From: Dactylosporangium sp. AC04546
GTDB lineage: Bacteria > Actinomycetota > Actinomycetes > Mycobacteriales > Micromonosporaceae
Reading direction: 5' to 3'
DNA length: 64,000 bases
Assembly (NCBI RefSeq): GCF_022095675.1
Contig: NZ_JAHYSG010000065.1
Coordinates: forward strand, 1-64,000
Part shown: positions 47,161 through 53,256 of the stretch, in pieces
Position numbering within the stretch: the stretch's first letter is position 1
How the letters are laid out: every line of letters begins with the position of its first letter
Program-made: the position numbers and the translations under genes
Notes under the pieces: model-generated
The model's database searches: none
The model's input: the letters and a program-made list of their open reading frames with translations, nothing else
Told to the model about the DNA's origin: nothing

Positions 47161-48684
47161 TCAGTAGCCCTTCCACTCCTCCCGGGCGTACTGCAGAATC
47201 CGCGGGTCCATGAGGGTCGACGGCGGGACGTCCACGCGGCGGCGGTCGGCCGGGAAGACCTGAGCGGCGCGCAGCACGTCCGGGTCCAGGAAGCGCAGCG
47301 GGGCGGGCGGGTCCACGCTCATCGCGGGCGGGTTCGGCGACGCCGAGGCCAGGAAGAAGCCCCAGTCGCCGAACGACGGCACGTCCACGTGGTACGGGAC
47401 CGTCGCGAAGCCCGCCTCCGCGAGCGACGCGCCCACACACCAGTAGGAGCGCTGGGCGAAGTACGGCGAGCCGGACTGCACGACGATCCGGCCGCCGGGC
47501 GCCAGCGCCTTGCGCACCATCGCGTAGAACTCGACCGAGTACAGCTTCGCGGTGGCGGTCTCGTCCGGGTCGGGCATGTCCACGATGATCGCGTCGAACT
47601 GGGGCGTCTCGTCCCGCAGCCACGCGAACGCGTCCGTGTTCAGCAGGCGTACCCGGGGGTCAGCGAACGCATCGGCGTTGAGCTTGTGCAGACGGGGGTC
47701 GGTGCGGGCGAGATCGATGACGGCCGGGTCCAGCTCAACCTCGGTGACGGTGGCGACGTCGGGGTACTTCAACACCTCCCGCAGCGCCAACCCGTCACCG
47801 CCGCCGAGGATGAGCACGGACCGCCGGGGGCCGGCGAGCACCGGGTGCACCAGGGCCTCGTGGTAGCGGTACTCGTCGCGCGAGGCGAACTGGAGATCGC
47901 CGTTGAGGAACAGCCGCACGTCGGACCCGTCCAGCGACTGGGTCAGGACGATCTCCTGGTACCGGCTGTGGGTGGCGAAGACGACCGGGTCGGCGTACAG
48001 CTCCTGGCGGGCGGTCACCTCGAAGCGCTGCGACAGCGCGAACGACGCCCCGAGCACGGCCAGCACCGCGAGCGCGGCGGCGCTCAGCGACACCGTCGAG
48101 CGGCGCACCAGGTCGCGGCGGAACACGGTGAACACGACGAGCAGGCCGACGACCGCGTTCACCACGCCGACGACGAGCGCGCCGCGCAGCTGGCCGAAGA
48201 CCGGCAGCAGCAGGAACGGGAACGCCAGGCCGCCCAGCAGGGCGCCGATGTAGTCGGCGGCGAACAGGTCGGCGACGGCGCTGCCGGCGTCCTGCTGCCG
48301 GATGCGCTGCAGCAGGACCATGAGCAGCGGAATCTCGGCGCCGATGAGCATGCCGAGCAGCAGCGCCATGGCGACCAGCGCCGGGGCGTACAGGTCCAGC
48401 CAGGCGAACGCGGCGTACAGCACGAGCACCGACAGGCCGCCGAACAGGGCCAGCAGCAGCTCGATCGCGGCGAACGCGACGAGGGCGTGCTTCTGCAGCG
48501 GCTTCGCGGCGAGCGCGCCGATGCCCATCGCGAAGACCATCACGCCGAGCACGATCGACGCCTGCGCGGCGGTGTCGCCGATGAGGTAGCTGCCGAGGGC
48601 GACCAGGGCGAGCTCGTACACCAGGCCGCAGGCCGCGCACACGAACACCGCCAGCAGGACCGCCGTCCGCCGGAACCGCGTCAC
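47161..48684 (-). CDS. membrane-bound spermidine synthase-like aminopropyltransferase
   Basis: The N-terminal 220 residues form about seven membrane helices (LLAVFVCAACGLVYELALVALGS and following), the C-terminal 280 a spermidine synthase fold: YQEIVLT, LFLNGDLQFASRDEYRYHEALVHP, LILGGGDGLALREVLKY and DAIIVDMPDPD. It may transfer an aminopropyl group from decarboxylated SAM to an amine at the membrane. Last gene of a six-gene operon; its GTG start overlaps the previous stop. 507 aa. Confidence 0.88.
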   Translation of the reverse strand: MTRFRRTAVLLAVFVCAACGLVYELALVALGSYLIGDTAAQASIVLGVMVFAMGIGALAAKPLQKHALVAFAAIELLLALFGGLSVLVLYAAFAWLDLYAPALVAMALLLGMLIGAEIPLLMVLLQRIRQQDAGSAVADLFAADYIGALLGGLAFPFLLLPVFGQLRGALVVGVVNAVVGLLVVFTVFRRDLVRRSTVSLSAAALAVLAVLGASFALSQRFEVTARQELYADPVVFATHSRYQEIVLTQSLDGSDVRLFLNGDLQFASRDEYRYHEALVHPVLAGPRRSVLILGGGDGLALREVLKYPDVATVTEVELDPAVIDLARTDPRLHKLNADAFADPRVRLLNTDAFAWLRDETPQFDAIIVDMPDPDETATAKLYSVEFYAMVRKALAPGGRIVVQSGSPYFAQRSYWCVGASLAEAGFATVPYHVDVPSFGDWGFFLASASPNPPAMSVDPPAPLRFLDPDVLRAAQVFPADRRRVDVPPSTLMDPRILQYAREEWKGY

Positions 48685-49853
48685 GGCTGCGGCGCCTGCG
48701 GTTTCGGTGGCGTCTCCCCGGCGGCTTCGGTCGCGGTGGCGTCGGTCGCCACGATCGCCACGGTCGGCGCGTCGTCCGCTGCGGCCCATGCCGGCGCAGC
48801 CTCAGTCGAAGCCTCCGCGCCCGCGCCCGCCGCGCCCGTAGCCGCCGCAGTCGTTCCCGCCGCGGCCGAAGCCGCCGCGTCCGTTCCCGCCGCAACCGTT
48901 CCCGCCGCAACCGTTCCCGCCGCGTCCGTGGAAGTGGAAGCCGACGCGGCCTCGGCCACGGTCTGGGCGGCGGCTGCCTGCGCCGCCGCGGCCTGGGCCG
49001 ACGCCGCCTTGGCCCGCTGGGCCGCCGCCGCGCTCGATCCGCGCTTGCGGGGCGGACCGCCCTTGCCCGGCCGGGCCGCCTTCCCGGTCGGCGCCACCTT
49101 CGCGGCGGCGGCCGGCGTCGTCTTGGCGGCCGGCGTGGCGAACGGGTCGGTCTCCTCGCCGCGCTTGAACCGCCGCGACGAGCGGATCCCGAAGATCAGC
49201 GTGACCAGCGCCCCGAGCAGCAGCACGCTCGACACGAGCACCAGCACCCAGCGGTCGCGCCAGAAGTCGCTGCCGGTGCTCGGCAGCGGCGCCACGGAGC
49301 CGGTCGCGGTGGGCTCCGGCACGGCGCCGCTCACGATGCCGGCCTGCTGCGCGATGAGCGGCAAAGCCTCGGCCGCGCCGAGGATCGCCTGGCTCGGGTC
49401 GTCGAGTAGCTGCTTGGTCCCGACGCCGACCTGGTCGAGCGCCGCGCTGTCGAGGCGCGTCGGAGCGTCGACGTTGGTGACGAACGTGTAGTACGCGTAG
49501 TCCTCGGAGTCGCTGCTGTCCGAGTAGTAGTAATACGTCCCGCGGACCACGATGTACTTCGCGCAGCTCGTCGGGTCCTCGTTGGCGCGCTTGCCGGCGC
49601 CGAGGTTGGAGCCGGCGCTGATCTCGGTCGACGAGGCGTAGAGCTGCCAGCCGTAGCACACGCCGTGGGCCTTCGCGGCCCGGTCGAGGCCGGCGACCAC
49701 GGAGGCCGCGTCGATGCTCGACGGCGGCGTCACCGCCTCGTCGTCGCCCGACGAGGAGAAGAACGCGGCCACGCAGATGCCGACGACGACCACGCCGACC
49801 ACCCAGACGGCGTTGATGACCTTGCTGTTGTCGGTCTTCGCGGCGGCAGCCAT
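48681..49853 (-). CDS. two-TM protein with Ala-rich C-terminal tail (operon protein)
   Basis: Residues 12-32 are a membrane helix, 33-175 an extracytoplasmic domain with two cysteines (AHGVCYGWQL, TSCAKYIVV) and a Tyr/Ser-rich stretch GTYYYYSDSSDSEDYAYYTF, then a second membrane helix (VLVLVSSVLLLGALVTLIFG). The last 160 residues are almost only Ala, Thr, Gly, Pro and Lys, probably disordered. No family recognised. TGATG coupling to the DUF350 gene upstream and GTGA to the aminopropyltransferase downstream tie it to the operon. Confidence 0.75.
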   Translation of the reverse strand: MAAAAKTDNSKVINAVWVVGVVVVGICVAAFFSSSGDDEAVTPPSSIDAASVVAGLDRAAKAHGVCYGWQLYASSTEISAGSNLGAGKRANEDPTSCAKYIVVRGTYYYYSDSSDSEDYAYYTFVTNVDAPTRLDSAALDQVGVGTKQLLDDPSQAILGAAEALPLIAQQAGIVSGAVPEPTATGSVAPLPSTGSDFWRDRWVLVLVSSVLLLGALVTLIFGIRSSRRFKRGEETDPFATPAAKTTPAAAAKVAPTGKAARPGKGGPPRKRGSSAAAAQRAKAASAQAAAAQAAAAQTVAEAASASTSTDAAGTVAAGTVAAGTDAAASAAAGTTAAATGAAGAGAEASTEAAPAWAAADDAPTVAIVATDATATEAAGETPPKPQAPQP

Positions 49854-50275
49854 CAGAGGATCGCCGCGGCGATGATGGCACCGACGGCCAGGTGGACGGC
49901 GGCGGTGATCCACACGGCCGGATGGGACTCCGGGTGGACCAGCAGCGCGCCGAGCTTCCCGGGCGTGGCCATGTCGACGACGATGAACGCGACGGTCATC
50001 ACCAGCAGGCCGACCAGCCCGTAGCCGACCGTGGAGGCGATGCCCTTCACGAAGTCGCCGTCGCTGGCCACGATCGCGGTCACGGTGATCGCGCCGACGG
50101 CGACCAGGTTCGATGCCAGCAGGATCGCCGCGTTGGCGTTGCGGTCGGTCCAGATGAGCTGGCGCAGCGAGCCGGGCGTCGCGACGTCGACGAGCACCGC
50201 ACCGATGGCCATGAGCACGATGCCGATCGCGGCGTAGCCGAGGGTGATCGCGAGGTCGGTGACGAGTTCGAGCAT
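49853..50275 (-). CDS. DUF350 membrane protein
   Basis: Two repeats of a two-helix unit: TLGYAAIGIVLMAIGAVLVDVATPG and TVGYGLVGLLVMTVAFIVVDMATPG, each ending in the D-xATPG signature of DUF350. 140 aa, four membrane helices. The E. coli relative YjfL lies in an operon with a glutathionylspermidine synthetase-like enzyme, so association with polyamine-type enzymes is a recurring theme. Confidence 0.9.
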   Translation of the reverse strand: MLELVTDLAITLGYAAIGIVLMAIGAVLVDVATPGSLRQLIWTDRNANAAILLASNLVAVGAITVTAIVASDGDFVKGIASTVGYGLVGLLVMTVAFIVVDMATPGKLGALLVHPESHPAVWITAAVHLAVGAIIAAAIL

Positions 50276-50280
50276 GTCGA

Positions 50281-50709
50281 CTACTTTCCGCTGCCGGGGC
50301 CGCCACCGCGGCCGCTGTTGCCGTCGCCGCGCCCGACCCAGCCGCTCCCGCCGACGGTGCCGGCGTAGCGGCTGTACGACGTGCGCAGAGCCTCGACCAG
50401 GATCAGCGTCCCGGTGCCGTTCGGCTTCAGGACGACGGAGTCCTTGGAGTACCGCAGGTAGATCCCGGTCGCGTCGGCGTACTGCCCGGCGGGCGACCAG
50501 GCGCCCGTGATCTCGTTGGCGACGCGCGTCGGGGACTTGCCGCTGGTGTACGCGCGGGCGTCCGTGCCGATGTCGCGGGTGGTCGCCCGCTGGTAGTGGT
50601 TCGACACGTACGCGCGCGGCGAGAAGCTGCCGGAGAACACCGTGATGCCGCCGATGAGCAGGCCCACGGCGCCCAGGCAGGCCGCCATGACGTACCAGAT
50701 CCGTCTCAC
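50281..50709 (-). CDS. DUF4247 membrane-anchored protein
   Basis: One N-terminal membrane helix (WYVMAACLGAVGLLIGGITVF), then the DUF4247 region: FSPRAYVSNHYQRATTRDIGTDARAYTSGKSP, IYLRYSKDSVVL and a Gly/Arg/Ser-rich tail. 142 aa, extracytoplasmic domain. Its GTG start overlaps the stop of the DUF2617 gene. Confidence 0.87.
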   Translation of the reverse strand: MRRIWYVMAACLGAVGLLIGGITVFSGSFSPRAYVSNHYQRATTRDIGTDARAYTSGKSPTRVANEITGAWSPAGQYADATGIYLRYSKDSVVLKPNGTGTLILVEALRTSYSRYAGTVGGSGWVGRGDGNSGRGGGPGSGK

Positions 50710-51188
50710 GCTGACGTCACCACCGTCTCCGTCGTCACGAGCTCCCCGGTCTGCGGGTAGGCGTGGGCCGTCCACCAGGCGGCGCCGCCCGGCACGGCCC
50801 GCGCGGCGAGCACGGTCAGCGCGTCGCGGGCCCCCGGGAAGGCACCGGCGAGCGCGTGCGCCTCGTCCTCGGCCCGGCGGCGCAGATCCGCGCACGCACT
50901 CGCGAAGTCACCGGCGTCAAGCGTGCAGACCGAGGCGCTGAAGGTGTACCCGGGGCGCGCGAACGACGCGGGCAGGCCGGCCGGCAGCGCGGGCAGGCAG
51001 GCGACCGTCTCGTCGACGTCGCGGAACCGCACCTGGTGCGACGCGCCGAGCAGCCGCAGCACGACCGCCTCGCCGCCCGGCAGCGGCACGGTCAGCGTGC
51101 GCAGCGCGGGCTGCGGCGGCAGGCCGAGCGCGAAGCGCAGGTCGGCCGCGGTCGTGTCGATGTACGGCGTGTCGAGCGTGACGAGCAC
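50706..51188 (-). CDS. DUF2617 protein
   Basis: 160 residues, cytoplasmic. VTLDTPYIDTTAADLRFALGLPP at the start, RLLGASHQVRFRD in the middle and RRRAEDEAHALAGAFPGARDALTVLAARA near the end follow the DUF2617 pattern. Function unknown; the family is encoded almost always beside DUF4178/DUF4247/DUF350 genes in actinobacteria, as far as I recall. Starts at GTG 51188, one base after the DUF4178 stop. Confidence 0.85.
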   Translation of the reverse strand: MLVTLDTPYIDTTAADLRFALGLPPQPALRTLTVPLPGGEAVVLRLLGASHQVRFRDVDETVACLPALPAGLPASFARPGYTFSASVCTLDAGDFASACADLRRRAEDEAHALAGAFPGARDALTVLAARAVPGGAAWWTAHAYPQTGELVTTETVVTSA

Positions 51189-51189
51189 G

Positions 51190-51807
51190 TCAGCCGCCCT
51201 GCGCCCACACGCGGACCTCCGAGCGCAGCAGCGTCTCGCCCCGGCCGACCTCCCACTTGTCGGCCTCGCCCGGGCCGGCGTAGGACTCGAACGACAGCAG
51301 CGCGCCGTCGCTCGACTCGTAGTCCGCGTACTTCGCGGTGCCCGTGGCCGCCAGCCCGGTGGTACCACTGGAGGCGAATTTGGCTTTTCCGGACTCGTCC
51401 TTCGAGTAGCGCCGGCCGTCGAAGTCGATGGTCGCCGGGCCCGGCGTCACGGTCGCCGAGGGCACCTCGTGCCACAGCGACAGCTCCAGGTCGGGGTCTT
51501 CCTCGACGCTCAGCCACACCTTGCGGCCGCCGGTCGAGTCGTCGAGCAGGTGCTCTGCCCAGCCCCACGACTGCTCCGTGTAGTGCAGGGTGCCACGCAC
51601 CGTGTACGTCGTGCCGCGAATCTCGACGAGGTCGCCCGCCTTGAGTTTGCGGGGGTCGCCGCGCAGCACGTCCTCGCCGGCGTCGCGGAACGGGTCCTGC
51701 GGTCCCGCCGGTGCGGGCGCCGCCGGTTTGCGGTTGCGCAGCAGCACGACGACGAGCACCGCGACGACGGCGAGCAGCACGACGACGAGGATTACCAGGC
51801 CGGTCAC
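51190..51807 (-). CDS. DUF4178 membrane-anchored protein
   Basis: N-terminal membrane helix (VILVVVLLAVVAVLVVVLL), Pro/Ala linker, then one DUF4178 domain: LKAGDLVEIRGTTYTVRGTLHYTEQSWGWAEHLLDD and KVWLSVEEDPDLELSLWHEV. 205 aa. First gene of the operon, with a GAGGA ribosome site before GTG 51807. The beta-rich domain may bind a modified peptide or lipid; that is inference. Confidence 0.87.
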   Translation of the reverse strand: MTGLVILVVVLLAVVAVLVVVLLRNRKPAAPAPAGPQDPFRDAGEDVLRGDPRKLKAGDLVEIRGTTYTVRGTLHYTEQSWGWAEHLLDDSTGGRKVWLSVEEDPDLELSLWHEVPSATVTPGPATIDFDGRRYSKDESGKAKFASSGTTGLAATGTAKYADYESSDGALLSFESYAGPGEADKWEVGRGETLLRSEVRVWAQGG

Positions 51808-51951: not shown

Positions 51952-53256
51952 GTGGTTGACACCCAGCAGCGGGCGGACGAGCTCGTCGACGTCCTGGTCA
52001 CCGAGTTCGGCGACCTCATGGCCCTCGACCCGGCCGCGTTCCGCCGGAAGTTCCGCAAGATGGCCGCCTCTCCGTTCGCGTTCTACCGCGGCAGCGCGTG
52101 CGTGTACTACGCCGACCTGCACACCCAGGCCGACCCGTTCCTCGACGAGCGGACGTCGCGGGTGTGGATCCACGGCGACCTGCACGCCGAGAACTTCGGC
52201 ACCTACCTGAACTCGGCCGGCATCCTCGTCTTCAACGTCAACGACTTCGACGAGGCGTACGTCGGCCCGTTCACCTGGGACCTCAAGCGGTTCGCGGCGA
52301 GCATCGCGCTCATCGGCTACGCGAAGGCGCTCTCCGACGCCGTCATCGGTGACCTCGTGACGGGCTATGCGCGCACATACGTGCAGGAGCTGCGCGCGAT
52401 CGCCGCCGGCGGTGAAGAGGCGATCGGCTCGCTGACCCTGGACACCACCGACGGGGTGCTGCGCGACGTGCTGCAGCGGGCCCGCCTGAACACCCGGGTC
52501 GGCCTGCTCGACGAGCAGACGGTGATCGAGGACTACGACCGCCGGTTCATGATGTCCGACGGCGTCTACCAGGTCGACGAGGCGATGCGCGCCGACGTCG
52601 AGGCCGCGTTCGCCGACTACCTCCCGACGCTGCCGACCCTGGACGCCGCGCGCCCCGAGCAGTACAAGATCAAGGACATCGTCATGCGGAAGGGCGTCGG
52701 CATCGGCTCGGCCGGCCTGCCCTCCTACAACGTCCTGCTGGAGGGCCACACCCAGGCCCTGGAGAACGACGTCATCATCTACATGAAGCAGGGCCAGACC
52801 CCGGCGGTGTCACGCTGGATCGACGACCCGCAGGTCAAGGGATACTTCAAGCACCAGGGCCACCGCACCAGCGAGTCGCAGCGTGCCCTGCAGGCCCACG
52901 CGGACATCTGGGCCGGTCACACCGTCCTTCGCGGGGTGGGCCAGGTGGTGGCGGAGGTCTCGCCGTACGCGGCGGACCTGGACTGGAGCGACGTCAACGA
53001 GCTCCCGGACCTCTCGAGCGTGACGAACTACCTGGGCCGCGCGACGGCCCGCATGCACTCGGTCGCCGACGACGAGTCGAGCCACGACCTGGTCGACTTC
53101 TCGACGGAGGAGGCGATCGTGGCCGCCATCGACCGCGACGAGCCCGCCTTCACGGCGTCGCTGGTGGAGTTCGCACACGAGTACGGCGCCCGCGCCCGCG
53201 CGGACCACCAGATCTTCGTCGACCTGTTCCGCAACGGAAAGCTCCCGGGCCTGTAG
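51952..53256 (+). CDS. DUF2252 protein (kinase-like fold)
   Basis: Typical DUF2252: FAFYRGSACVYYADL near residue 45, WIHGDLHAENFGTY, and VFNVNDFDEAYVGPFTWDLKRFAAS, which correspond to the catalytic HGDxHxxN and DFD motifs of APH-like kinases. C-terminal part QALQAHADIWAGHTV follows the family. 434 aa. The phosphorylated substrate is unknown. Divergent from the DUF4178 operon, 144 bp away; no further element is seen in that gap. Confidence 0.9.
   Translation: MVDTQQRADELVDVLVTEFGDLMALDPAAFRRKFRKMAASPFAFYRGSACVYYADLHTQADPFLDERTSRVWIHGDLHAENFGTYLNSAGILVFNVNDFDEAYVGPFTWDLKRFAASIALIGYAKALSDAVIGDLVTGYARTYVQELRAIAAGGEEAIGSLTLDTTDGVLRDVLQRARLNTRVGLLDEQTVIEDYDRRFMMSDGVYQVDEAMRADVEAAFADYLPTLPTLDAARPEQYKIKDIVMRKGVGIGSAGLPSYNVLLEGHTQALENDVIIYMKQGQTPAVSRWIDDPQVKGYFKHQGHRTSESQRALQAHADIWAGHTVLRGVGQVVAEVSPYAADLDWSDVNELPDLSSVTNYLGRATARMHSVADDESSHDLVDFSTEEAIVAAIDRDEPAFTASLVEFAHEYGARARADHQIFVDLFRNGKLPGL

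What the first reader, a model, noticed from the sequence alone, without database searches (positions are those of the whole stretch)
47161..51807. Envelope/polyamine-type operon: DUF4178-DUF2617-DUF4247-DUF350-Ala-rich TM protein-membrane aminopropyltransferase
Six genes are joined by overlaps or gaps of at most 5 bp. Four encode families without known function, one has no recognised family, and the only enzyme is a seven-TM spermidine synthase homologue. Five of the six products are membrane-anchored. DUF350 proteins elsewhere accompany glutathionylspermidine-type enzymes, so a membrane-localised polyamine conjugation or peptide-tagging system is a reasonable hypothesis.
Basis: partly seen in the sequence, partly recalled or inferred. 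Interest (0 to 1): 0.78.

Follow-up and report, generated by a model that had tools for sequence, protein, structure and literature searches.

The report
Actinobacterial operon hiding a missing decarboxylase
A six-gene membrane operon found in many actinobacteria appears to contain, in a protein of unknown function, the missing enzyme that makes the building block its membrane transferase needs, possibly to decorate an exported protein rather than to make ordinary polyamines.

The parts
51190..51807 (-). DUF4178 protein, one N-terminal TM helix
   Evidence: PF13785 E 3.1e-37; hydropathy; in 36 of 59 loci
50706..51188 (-). DUF2617 protein, proposed AdoMet decarboxylase (no TM segment, 160 aa)
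   Evidence: PF10936 E 1.1e-47; AF2 model of this protein pLDDT 96.4, of a haloarchaeal homologue 93.6; AdoMetDC structures rank first for the latter, tied with unrelated folds for the former; in 56 of 59 loci
51036..51041 (-). Ser50-His51 of DUF2617: proposed pyruvoyl-forming Ser
   Evidence: 208 of 208 sequences each; HHalign puts it on the ESH motif of class 1b AdoMetDC as a second, weak hit (E 0.044 at best); VIA aligns model residue 51 with human residue 69, the first residue of those chains
50997..50999 (-). Cys64 of DUF2617: proposed catalytic Cys
   Evidence: 207 of 208
50814..50816 (-). Thr125 of DUF2617, counterpart of a catalytic Ser (human Ser229, role recalled)
   Evidence: 208 of 208; alignments
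50763..50765 (-). His142 of DUF2617, counterpart of human His243 / class 1b His of HT[WY]PE
   Evidence: 208 of 208; alignments
50281..50709 (-). DUF4247 protein, N-terminal TM/signal segment
   Evidence: PF14042 E 2.8e-21; hydropathy; in 30 of 59 loci
50284..50310 (-). C-terminal tail RGGGPGSGK of DUF4247, candidate acceptor (terminal Lys)
   Evidence: a tail of this kind in all 41 loci that are not of the reduced Streptomyces type, window included
49853..50275 (-). DUF350 membrane protein (YjfL family)
   Evidence: PF03994 E 1.3e-23; in 40 of 59 loci
48681..49853 (-). gene 5: two-TM protein, domain between them with conserved CYGW, Ala-rich C-terminal tail
   Evidence: no Pfam family; homologues; in 4 of 59 loci
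47161..48684 (-). multi-TM domain fused to a spermidine-synthase-like domain
   Evidence: NF002956 700 bits; PF01564; residues; seven segments in the family average, eight windows in the single sequence

Best explanation
This is a membrane aminopropylation system. DUF2617 is a divergent, compact AdoMet decarboxylase made of two fused AdoMetDC-like halves. By inference it cleaves itself at the invariant Ser50 to form a pyruvoyl group and makes decarboxylated AdoMet in the cytosol. The membrane-fused spermidine-synthase-like protein uses this donor to aminopropylate something other than free putrescine. The likeliest acceptor is the C-terminal lysine of the Gly-rich tail on the operon's DUF4247 protein. 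Positive-inside counting suggests that the transferase domain lies outside the membrane; if so, the TM part, perhaps with DUF350, must pass the donor across. Shown by computation: gene content, phyletic pattern, fold of a haloarchaeal member, conserved residues, conserved tail. Inferred: decarboxylase activity, transfer, acceptor, sidedness.
Confidence: 0.72

Rival explanations
1. DUF2617 has the AdoMetDC fold but is not a decarboxylase: an AdoMet/dcAdoMet-binding regulator or prozyme-like partner, and the fusion takes AdoMet itself (methyl or aminocarboxypropyl transfer).
For: Glu before Ser is mostly absent (17 of 208); no PF02675 enzyme in 47 of 53 fusion genomes, so the fusion might not need dcAdoMet.
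Against: Ser, Cys, Thr and His of the presumed active site are essentially invariant, unusual for a pseudo-enzyme; 7 of 9 fusion loci of other bacterial phyla have a Pfam-type speD nearby; the fusion keeps the Asp residues recalled to hold the dcAdoMet amine.
Confidence: 0.15
2. An ordinary spermidine pathway: DUF2617 makes dcAdoMet and the fusion makes free spermidine from putrescine.
For: The fusion is modelled by NCBIfam as polyamine aminopropyltransferase; Rv2601 is called spermidine synthase, and de novo spermine synthesis in Streptomyces and Mycobacterium is cited (passage); low spermidine and spermine were reported in S. coelicolor on complex medium (passage).
Against: Mycolicibacterium smegmatis is reported to contain no detectable polyamines (passage in PMC8503589); absence of spermidine and failed complementation by such fusions are recalled from Li 2019 (not held); it leaves the membrane fusion, DUF350 and the tail unexplained.
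Confidence: 0.1
3. An envelope-stress scaffold of the PspA type in which polyamine chemistry is secondary.
For: Ravi 2024 ties related operons to PspA; two PspA homologues exist elsewhere in the genome.
Against: No PspA hit among the six products; the pair kept in the reduced loci is DUF2617 + fusion, the two proposed enzymes.
Confidence: 0.1

Closest known systems
AdoMet decarboxylase (SpeD; PF02675 class 1, PF01536 class 2)
   Same: Fold of the haloarchaeal DUF2617 model, Ser/Cys/Thr-for-Ser/His set, gene partner of an aminopropyltransferase homologue
   Different: No Pfam hit, about 160 aa with two halves, Glu before Ser mostly replaced by Ala or Ser, in the class sample always with the membrane fusion
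7TM-spermidine synthase operons (Ravi 2024, PMC11237479, passages read; Li 2019, title seen in reference lists, abstract recalled)
   Same: Same DUF4178, DUF350, DUF2617, DUF4247 and fusion genes
   Different: [quoted passage not shown] gene 5 is not named there
E. coli yjfLMC and ygiBC (DUF1190 protein beside an annotated peptide-spermidine ligase; DUF350 in yjf)
   Same: A protein with a Gly-rich C-terminus next to a polyamine-type enzyme
   Different: Those proteins end in -GG (a carboxyl for an ATP-grasp ligase); here the end is -K (an amine for an aminopropyltransferase), and none of the six products has an ATP-grasp hit
Hypusine and microcin C aminopropyl modification (recalled)
   Same: An aminopropyl or related group put on a protein or peptide
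   Different: Different enzymes and, as proposed here, a C-terminal lysine

Membership tests
AdoMet decarboxylase superfamily (for DUF2617) | Fold, tested on a haloarchaeal DUF2617 model | tested here: met
   [not shown]
AdoMet decarboxylase superfamily (for DUF2617) | Fold, tested on the window's own protein | tested here: inconclusive
   [not shown]
AdoMet decarboxylase superfamily (for DUF2617) | Invariant Ser that becomes the pyruvoyl group | tested here: met
   208 of 208, on the ESH Ser in HHalign; conversion itself untested
AdoMet decarboxylase superfamily (for DUF2617) | Catalytic Cys, Ser/Thr and His | tested here: met
   C64 207, T125 208, H142 208 of 208
AdoMet decarboxylase, known class 1 or 2 | Hit to PF02675 or PF01536 | tested here: not met
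   44 actinobacterial members and 2 haloarchaeal: none; so filed as a separate, related family
AdoMet decarboxylase, known class 1 or 2 | Glu immediately before the cleaved Ser | tested here: not met
   Glu in 17 of 208
AdoMet decarboxylase superfamily (for DUF2617) | Self-cleavage and AdoMet decarboxylation | not testable with these tools
   needs bench work
Aminopropyltransferase (for the fusion) | Spermine_synth domain | tested here: met
   PF01564 5.1e-36, NF002956 700 bits
Aminopropyltransferase (for the fusion) | GGGDG and DxxDP acidic residues | tested here: met
   D297 57, D369 57, D372 54 of 58 rows (L103 left out)
Aminopropyltransferase (for the fusion) | Transfers aminopropyl to putrescine | not testable with these tools
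   Failed complementation by related fusions is recalled only
Polyamine-type operon variants of Ravi 2024 | Fusion, DUF350, DUF4178, DUF2617, DUF4247 together | tested here: met
ATP-grasp peptide-spermidine ligase operon | ATP-grasp ligase gene in the operon | tested here: not met
   No such domain among the six products

The most novel reading that the evidence does not exclude
The operon carries out a new protein modification: outside the membrane, a membrane-fused aminopropyltransferase fed by a third class of AdoMet decarboxylase puts aminopropyl groups on the C-terminal lysine of a Gly-rich tail (typically RGGG[PS]GxGK) of an exported protein, mirroring the E. coli ligases whose presumed partner proteins end in -GG.
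Probability: 0.33. Interest if true: 0.93.

Novelty: new variant of a known kind. Interest (0 to 1): 0.8.

Why it matters
In this survey 47 of 53 fusion-bearing Actinomycetes genomes, and H. volcanii among the controls, have an aminopropyltransferase homologue but no Pfam-recognised source of its donor. Naming DUF2617 as that source turns an unexplained gene pair into a testable two-enzyme pathway. The conserved Lys tail gives a concrete acceptor to look for by mass spectrometry and would give DUF4247 and perhaps DUF350 a place in one mechanism. The same families are in C. glutamicum (controls) and mycobacteria.

Tried and rejected
Polyamine synthesis with an ordinary speD: rejected for most genomes, as PF02675 is found in 6 of 53 fusion genomes and not in the window's genome. 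Eukaryotic-type AdoMetDC PF01536: 0 of 56, but the control rang nowhere, so inconclusive.

Direct search of the DUF2617 profile against PDB sequences: no match at E 10. DUF2617 against plasmids by tblastn with the window protein: no match, although haloarchaeal plasmids do carry it; that query is too distant. Foldseek alone gave nothing below E 0.001 for either model.

Gene 5: 14 and 12 proteins found (the first scored only the candidates sharing most words), Dactylosporangium or Micromonospora where a source names them, plus one locus outside the class (L076).

The 18 Streptomyces-type loci were searched for a Lys-tail protein: none; conserved frames around one of them were listed and suggested no acceptor, but were not annotated. 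Haloarchaeal loci: 1 of 5003 frames fits the tail pattern, not next to the fusion. In the nine other bacterial loci a loose filter (terminal Lys, at least 5 of the last 12 residues G, S or P) gave 18 frames; I picked 7 by a hydrophobic or lipoprotein-like segment and position near DUF350, fusion or speD, the other 11 being background; L128 and L205 had no candidate. In L126 both the candidate and the AdoMet_dc hit are on the strand opposite to the fusion.

Literature: 10 searches. DUF2617 occurs in 3 papers of the held library; the passages read do not call it AdoMetDC. Li 2019 is not held. Pederick 2023 (YgiC/YjfC ligase) was seen only as a title in reference lists and through one citing passage.

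Left out before counts: L103 (fusion in two frames) from the fusion alignments; L067 (DUF2617 hit in two pieces) and 11 of the other 54 loci from A1 to limit redundancy (44 rows with the window); only the 120 listed of 1052 DUF2617 proteins found were used; L200 (two pieces) and three plasmid loci that recur among the genome loci from the 208-sequence set; 13 AdoMet_dc loci whose motif regex failed and two repeats from the class 1b profile (22 gathered, 20 used). Of the 62 plasmid records with a fusion-domain match nine bacterial (H1, H3, H5-H9, H11, H12) and eight haloarchaeal ones were fetched. The tail regex was written after seeing the DUF4247 tails, so its counts are descriptive. The topology script split the segments into ten overlapping cores, which I merged to seven by eye.
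Full report
Observation. The six genes exist as described on the minus strand, with junctions of 1, -4, 5, -1 and -4 bp. Families: DUF4178, DUF2617, DUF4247, DUF350, none, Spermine_synth; the last is NF002956 at 700 bits. Only DUF2617 lacks a membrane segment. Gene 5's closest named homologues are from Dactylosporangium, so the host is probably a Dactylosporangium-like actinomycete (inference).

Prior knowledge. Ravi et al. 2024 (PMC11237479; [quoted passage not shown] they also mention an AdoMet decarboxylase in related operons. Li et al. 2019 (not held; recalled) reported a polyamine-independent role for AdoMetDC in genomes with such fusions. The operon as such is therefore not new.

Conservation. 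Fusion loci of 52 other class genomes (3 with two copies) and 3 genomes from elsewhere in the phylum, 58 stretches, plus the window, were scanned with profiles seeded from the window. DUF2617 is in 56 of 59, DUF350 in 40, DUF4178 in 36, DUF4247 in 30, gene 5 in 4. Eighteen loci, all from one unnamed genus (g7) that I take to be Streptomyces, hold only DUF2617 and the fusion; three genomes of that genus (G123, G337, G373) have such a pair and also a second locus with DUF2617, DUF4247, DUF350 and fusion but no DUF4178 hit.

The missing decarboxylase. The window's genome (completeness 99.75, contamination 11.54) has no PF02675 match, while 8 of 14 control genomes ring. In the same 196 sampled Actinomycetes genomes the fusion is over cut-off in 53, PF02675 matches in 7, 6 of them with the fusion, and DUF2617 matches in 50, all with the fusion. 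The 3 fusion genomes without DUF2617 (G049, G214, G299) are all among the 6 with PF02675; by hand, the hypergeometric chance is 20/23426, about 0.0009. They represent only two genera; counted by genus (2 of 18 lack DUF2617, 4 of 18 have PF02675) it is 6/153, about 0.04. Against strict exclusion, G023, G182 and G397 carry both. In the 246-genome phylum set PF02675 is in 28; the three fusion genomes from outside the class (G154, G244, G117) are not among them and have DUF2617 next to the fusion. Among the controls, C. glutamicum and Haloferax volcanii ring for DUF2617 and not for PF02675.

Other phyla. Nine bacterial loci outside actinobacteria (L125-L128, L203-L207, from 62 plasmid-collection records with a match) were scanned: AdoMet_dc within the fetched 6-8 kb in 7, DUF2617 in 0. 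In L126 the AdoMet_dc hit is on the opposite strand; L204 shows neither and L205 has only a short fusion frame. In Novosphingobium the annotated order is SPFH, DUF4178, DUF4178, small peptide, DUF350, fusion, FAD oxidoreductase, speD. In haloarchaea, of 40 loci found with a DUF2617 profile, 39 have the fusion directly upstream, the other is cut by the contig end, and none of these stretches (at most 10.5 kb, not whole genomes) shows an AdoMet_dc hit.

In 208 sequences (164 actinobacterial, 44 haloarchaeal) S50, H51, E60, A123, T125, H142 and Y144 are in 208, C64 and P145 in 207. Haloarchaeal members read IG[ESNA]SH...C and YETYHTYPE; class 1b AdoMetDC reads ESH...HT[WY]PE...TC in most rows. 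HHalign aligns the C half (F.P.A.T...YETYHTYPE) to F.PHGV[ST]...HTWPE with E 3.6e-5, and as second hit, E 0.044, the SH...C of the N half to ESH...TCG. Controls, run on the earlier 8-sequence haloarchaeal set with score 32.2: 0 of 150 column shuffles reach it (highest 19.6), reversed profile 15.4, five other families at most 20.1; a single human class 2 sequence, a known relative, scores 20.9. The actinobacterial set alone is not significant (E 0.066); the combined set gives E 0.0011. No DUF2617 member scanned hits Pfam AdoMetDC and the residue before Ser is Glu in only 17 of 208. I therefore call DUF2617 a separate family related to AdoMetDC, most like class 2 in that the N half carries Ser and Cys and the C half Thr and His. 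Catalytic roles of human Ser68, Cys82, Ser229 and His243 are recalled; PDB entry 1MSV is titled the S68A processing mutant and the 1JL0 sequence has Ala at 243.

The transferase. In 58 fusion rows (L103 left out) Q243 is in 58, D297 57, D319 58, D351 58, D369 57, D372 54; the donor-site acids (roles recalled) are kept. The family-averaged hydropathy reads as seven segments after merging overlapping cores by eye; Lys/Arg per sequence is 2.2, 2.7, 2.7 and 3.5 in the N-terminus and in the loops I count as 2, 4 and 6, while the other loops are so short that they hold almost no residues; this predicts N-in, C-out. Against it, a single-sequence scan of the window's fusion counts eight windows. Haloarchaeal fusions give a weaker pattern, as their loops are acidic too, and have two Cys in the transferase domain in all 39 rows. 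Sidedness is inference.

The tail. All 30 DUF4247 proteins end in a Gly-rich stretch and terminal Lys. In the 11 loci with DUF350 but no DUF4247 hit the same RGGG[PST]..GK end occurs: 10 on small, by eye lipoprotein-like proteins just before DUF350, and in L103 on a frame of unclear start between DUF2617 and fusion. With a loose pattern, 43 of 11639 stop-ended frames match in the 58 loci: at least one in 40 of 40 loci that are not of the reduced type (DUF350 was detected in 39 of these 40), and in the window, 0 in the 18 reduced loci, 0 of 1260 frames of AdoMet_dc loci, 1 of 5003 haloarchaeal frames. In other bacteria a one-TM or lipoprotein-like protein with a G/S/P-rich, Lys-ending tail lies near DUF350, fusion or speD in 7 of 9 loci, Ensifer even with GGGPESGK; these 7 were picked from 18 frames passing a loose filter. 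E. coli YjfM and YgiB, beside annotated peptide-spermidine ligases, end in -GG. The end of the tail thus fits the chemistry of the neighbouring enzyme, but DUF350 rather than the transferase could be what reads it, since tail and DUF350 are lost together in the reduced loci.

Function. M. smegmatis is reported to lack polyamines (PMC8503589 passage), while a mycobacterial DUF2617 is in the protein list, so free spermidine is not an obvious product. Against this, polyamines are reported in S. coelicolor (PMC9397018 passage) and de novo spermine in Streptomyces and Mycobacterium is cited (PMC11841054 passage). Rv2599 (DUF4247) is reported with an N-terminal signal/TM, silent in log phase, moderately expressed in stationary phase, and binding matrix proteins in vitro (PMC3726780 passages). 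The acceptor hypothesis is a lead, not a result.

Noticed in passing
own genome G000:C63:28543-29361 (L208 6529-7416): A second, tandem-DUF350 reading frame elsewhere in the same genome.
   Followed up: partly
L211 9388-10026, L212 1745-2416: E. coli YjfM and YgiB, neighbours of annotated peptide-spermidine ligases, end in -WGG and -MGG, suggesting a C-terminal carboxyl acceptor.
   Followed up: partly
haloarchaeal loci such as L161 988-1680: A lipoprotein-like gene (annotated Tat-type in L157) sits before the fusion, with a recurring internal Gly/Arg/Lys-rich stretch (such as AKGKGGGGGRG..GRG.GGY..APRT), a possible alternative acceptor.
   Followed up: no
window 48681-49853; L067, L088, L076: Gene 5 family (CYGW motif, two TM) lies between DUF350 and fusion in the window and two genomes of its family, but between DUF4247 and DUF350 in a genome outside the class.
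   Followed up: partly
own genome G000:C121:26391-27107 and C28:31221-31901: Two PspA homologues outside the window.
   Followed up: no
window 51952-53256: Divergently transcribed DUF2252 gene next to the operon.
   Followed up: no
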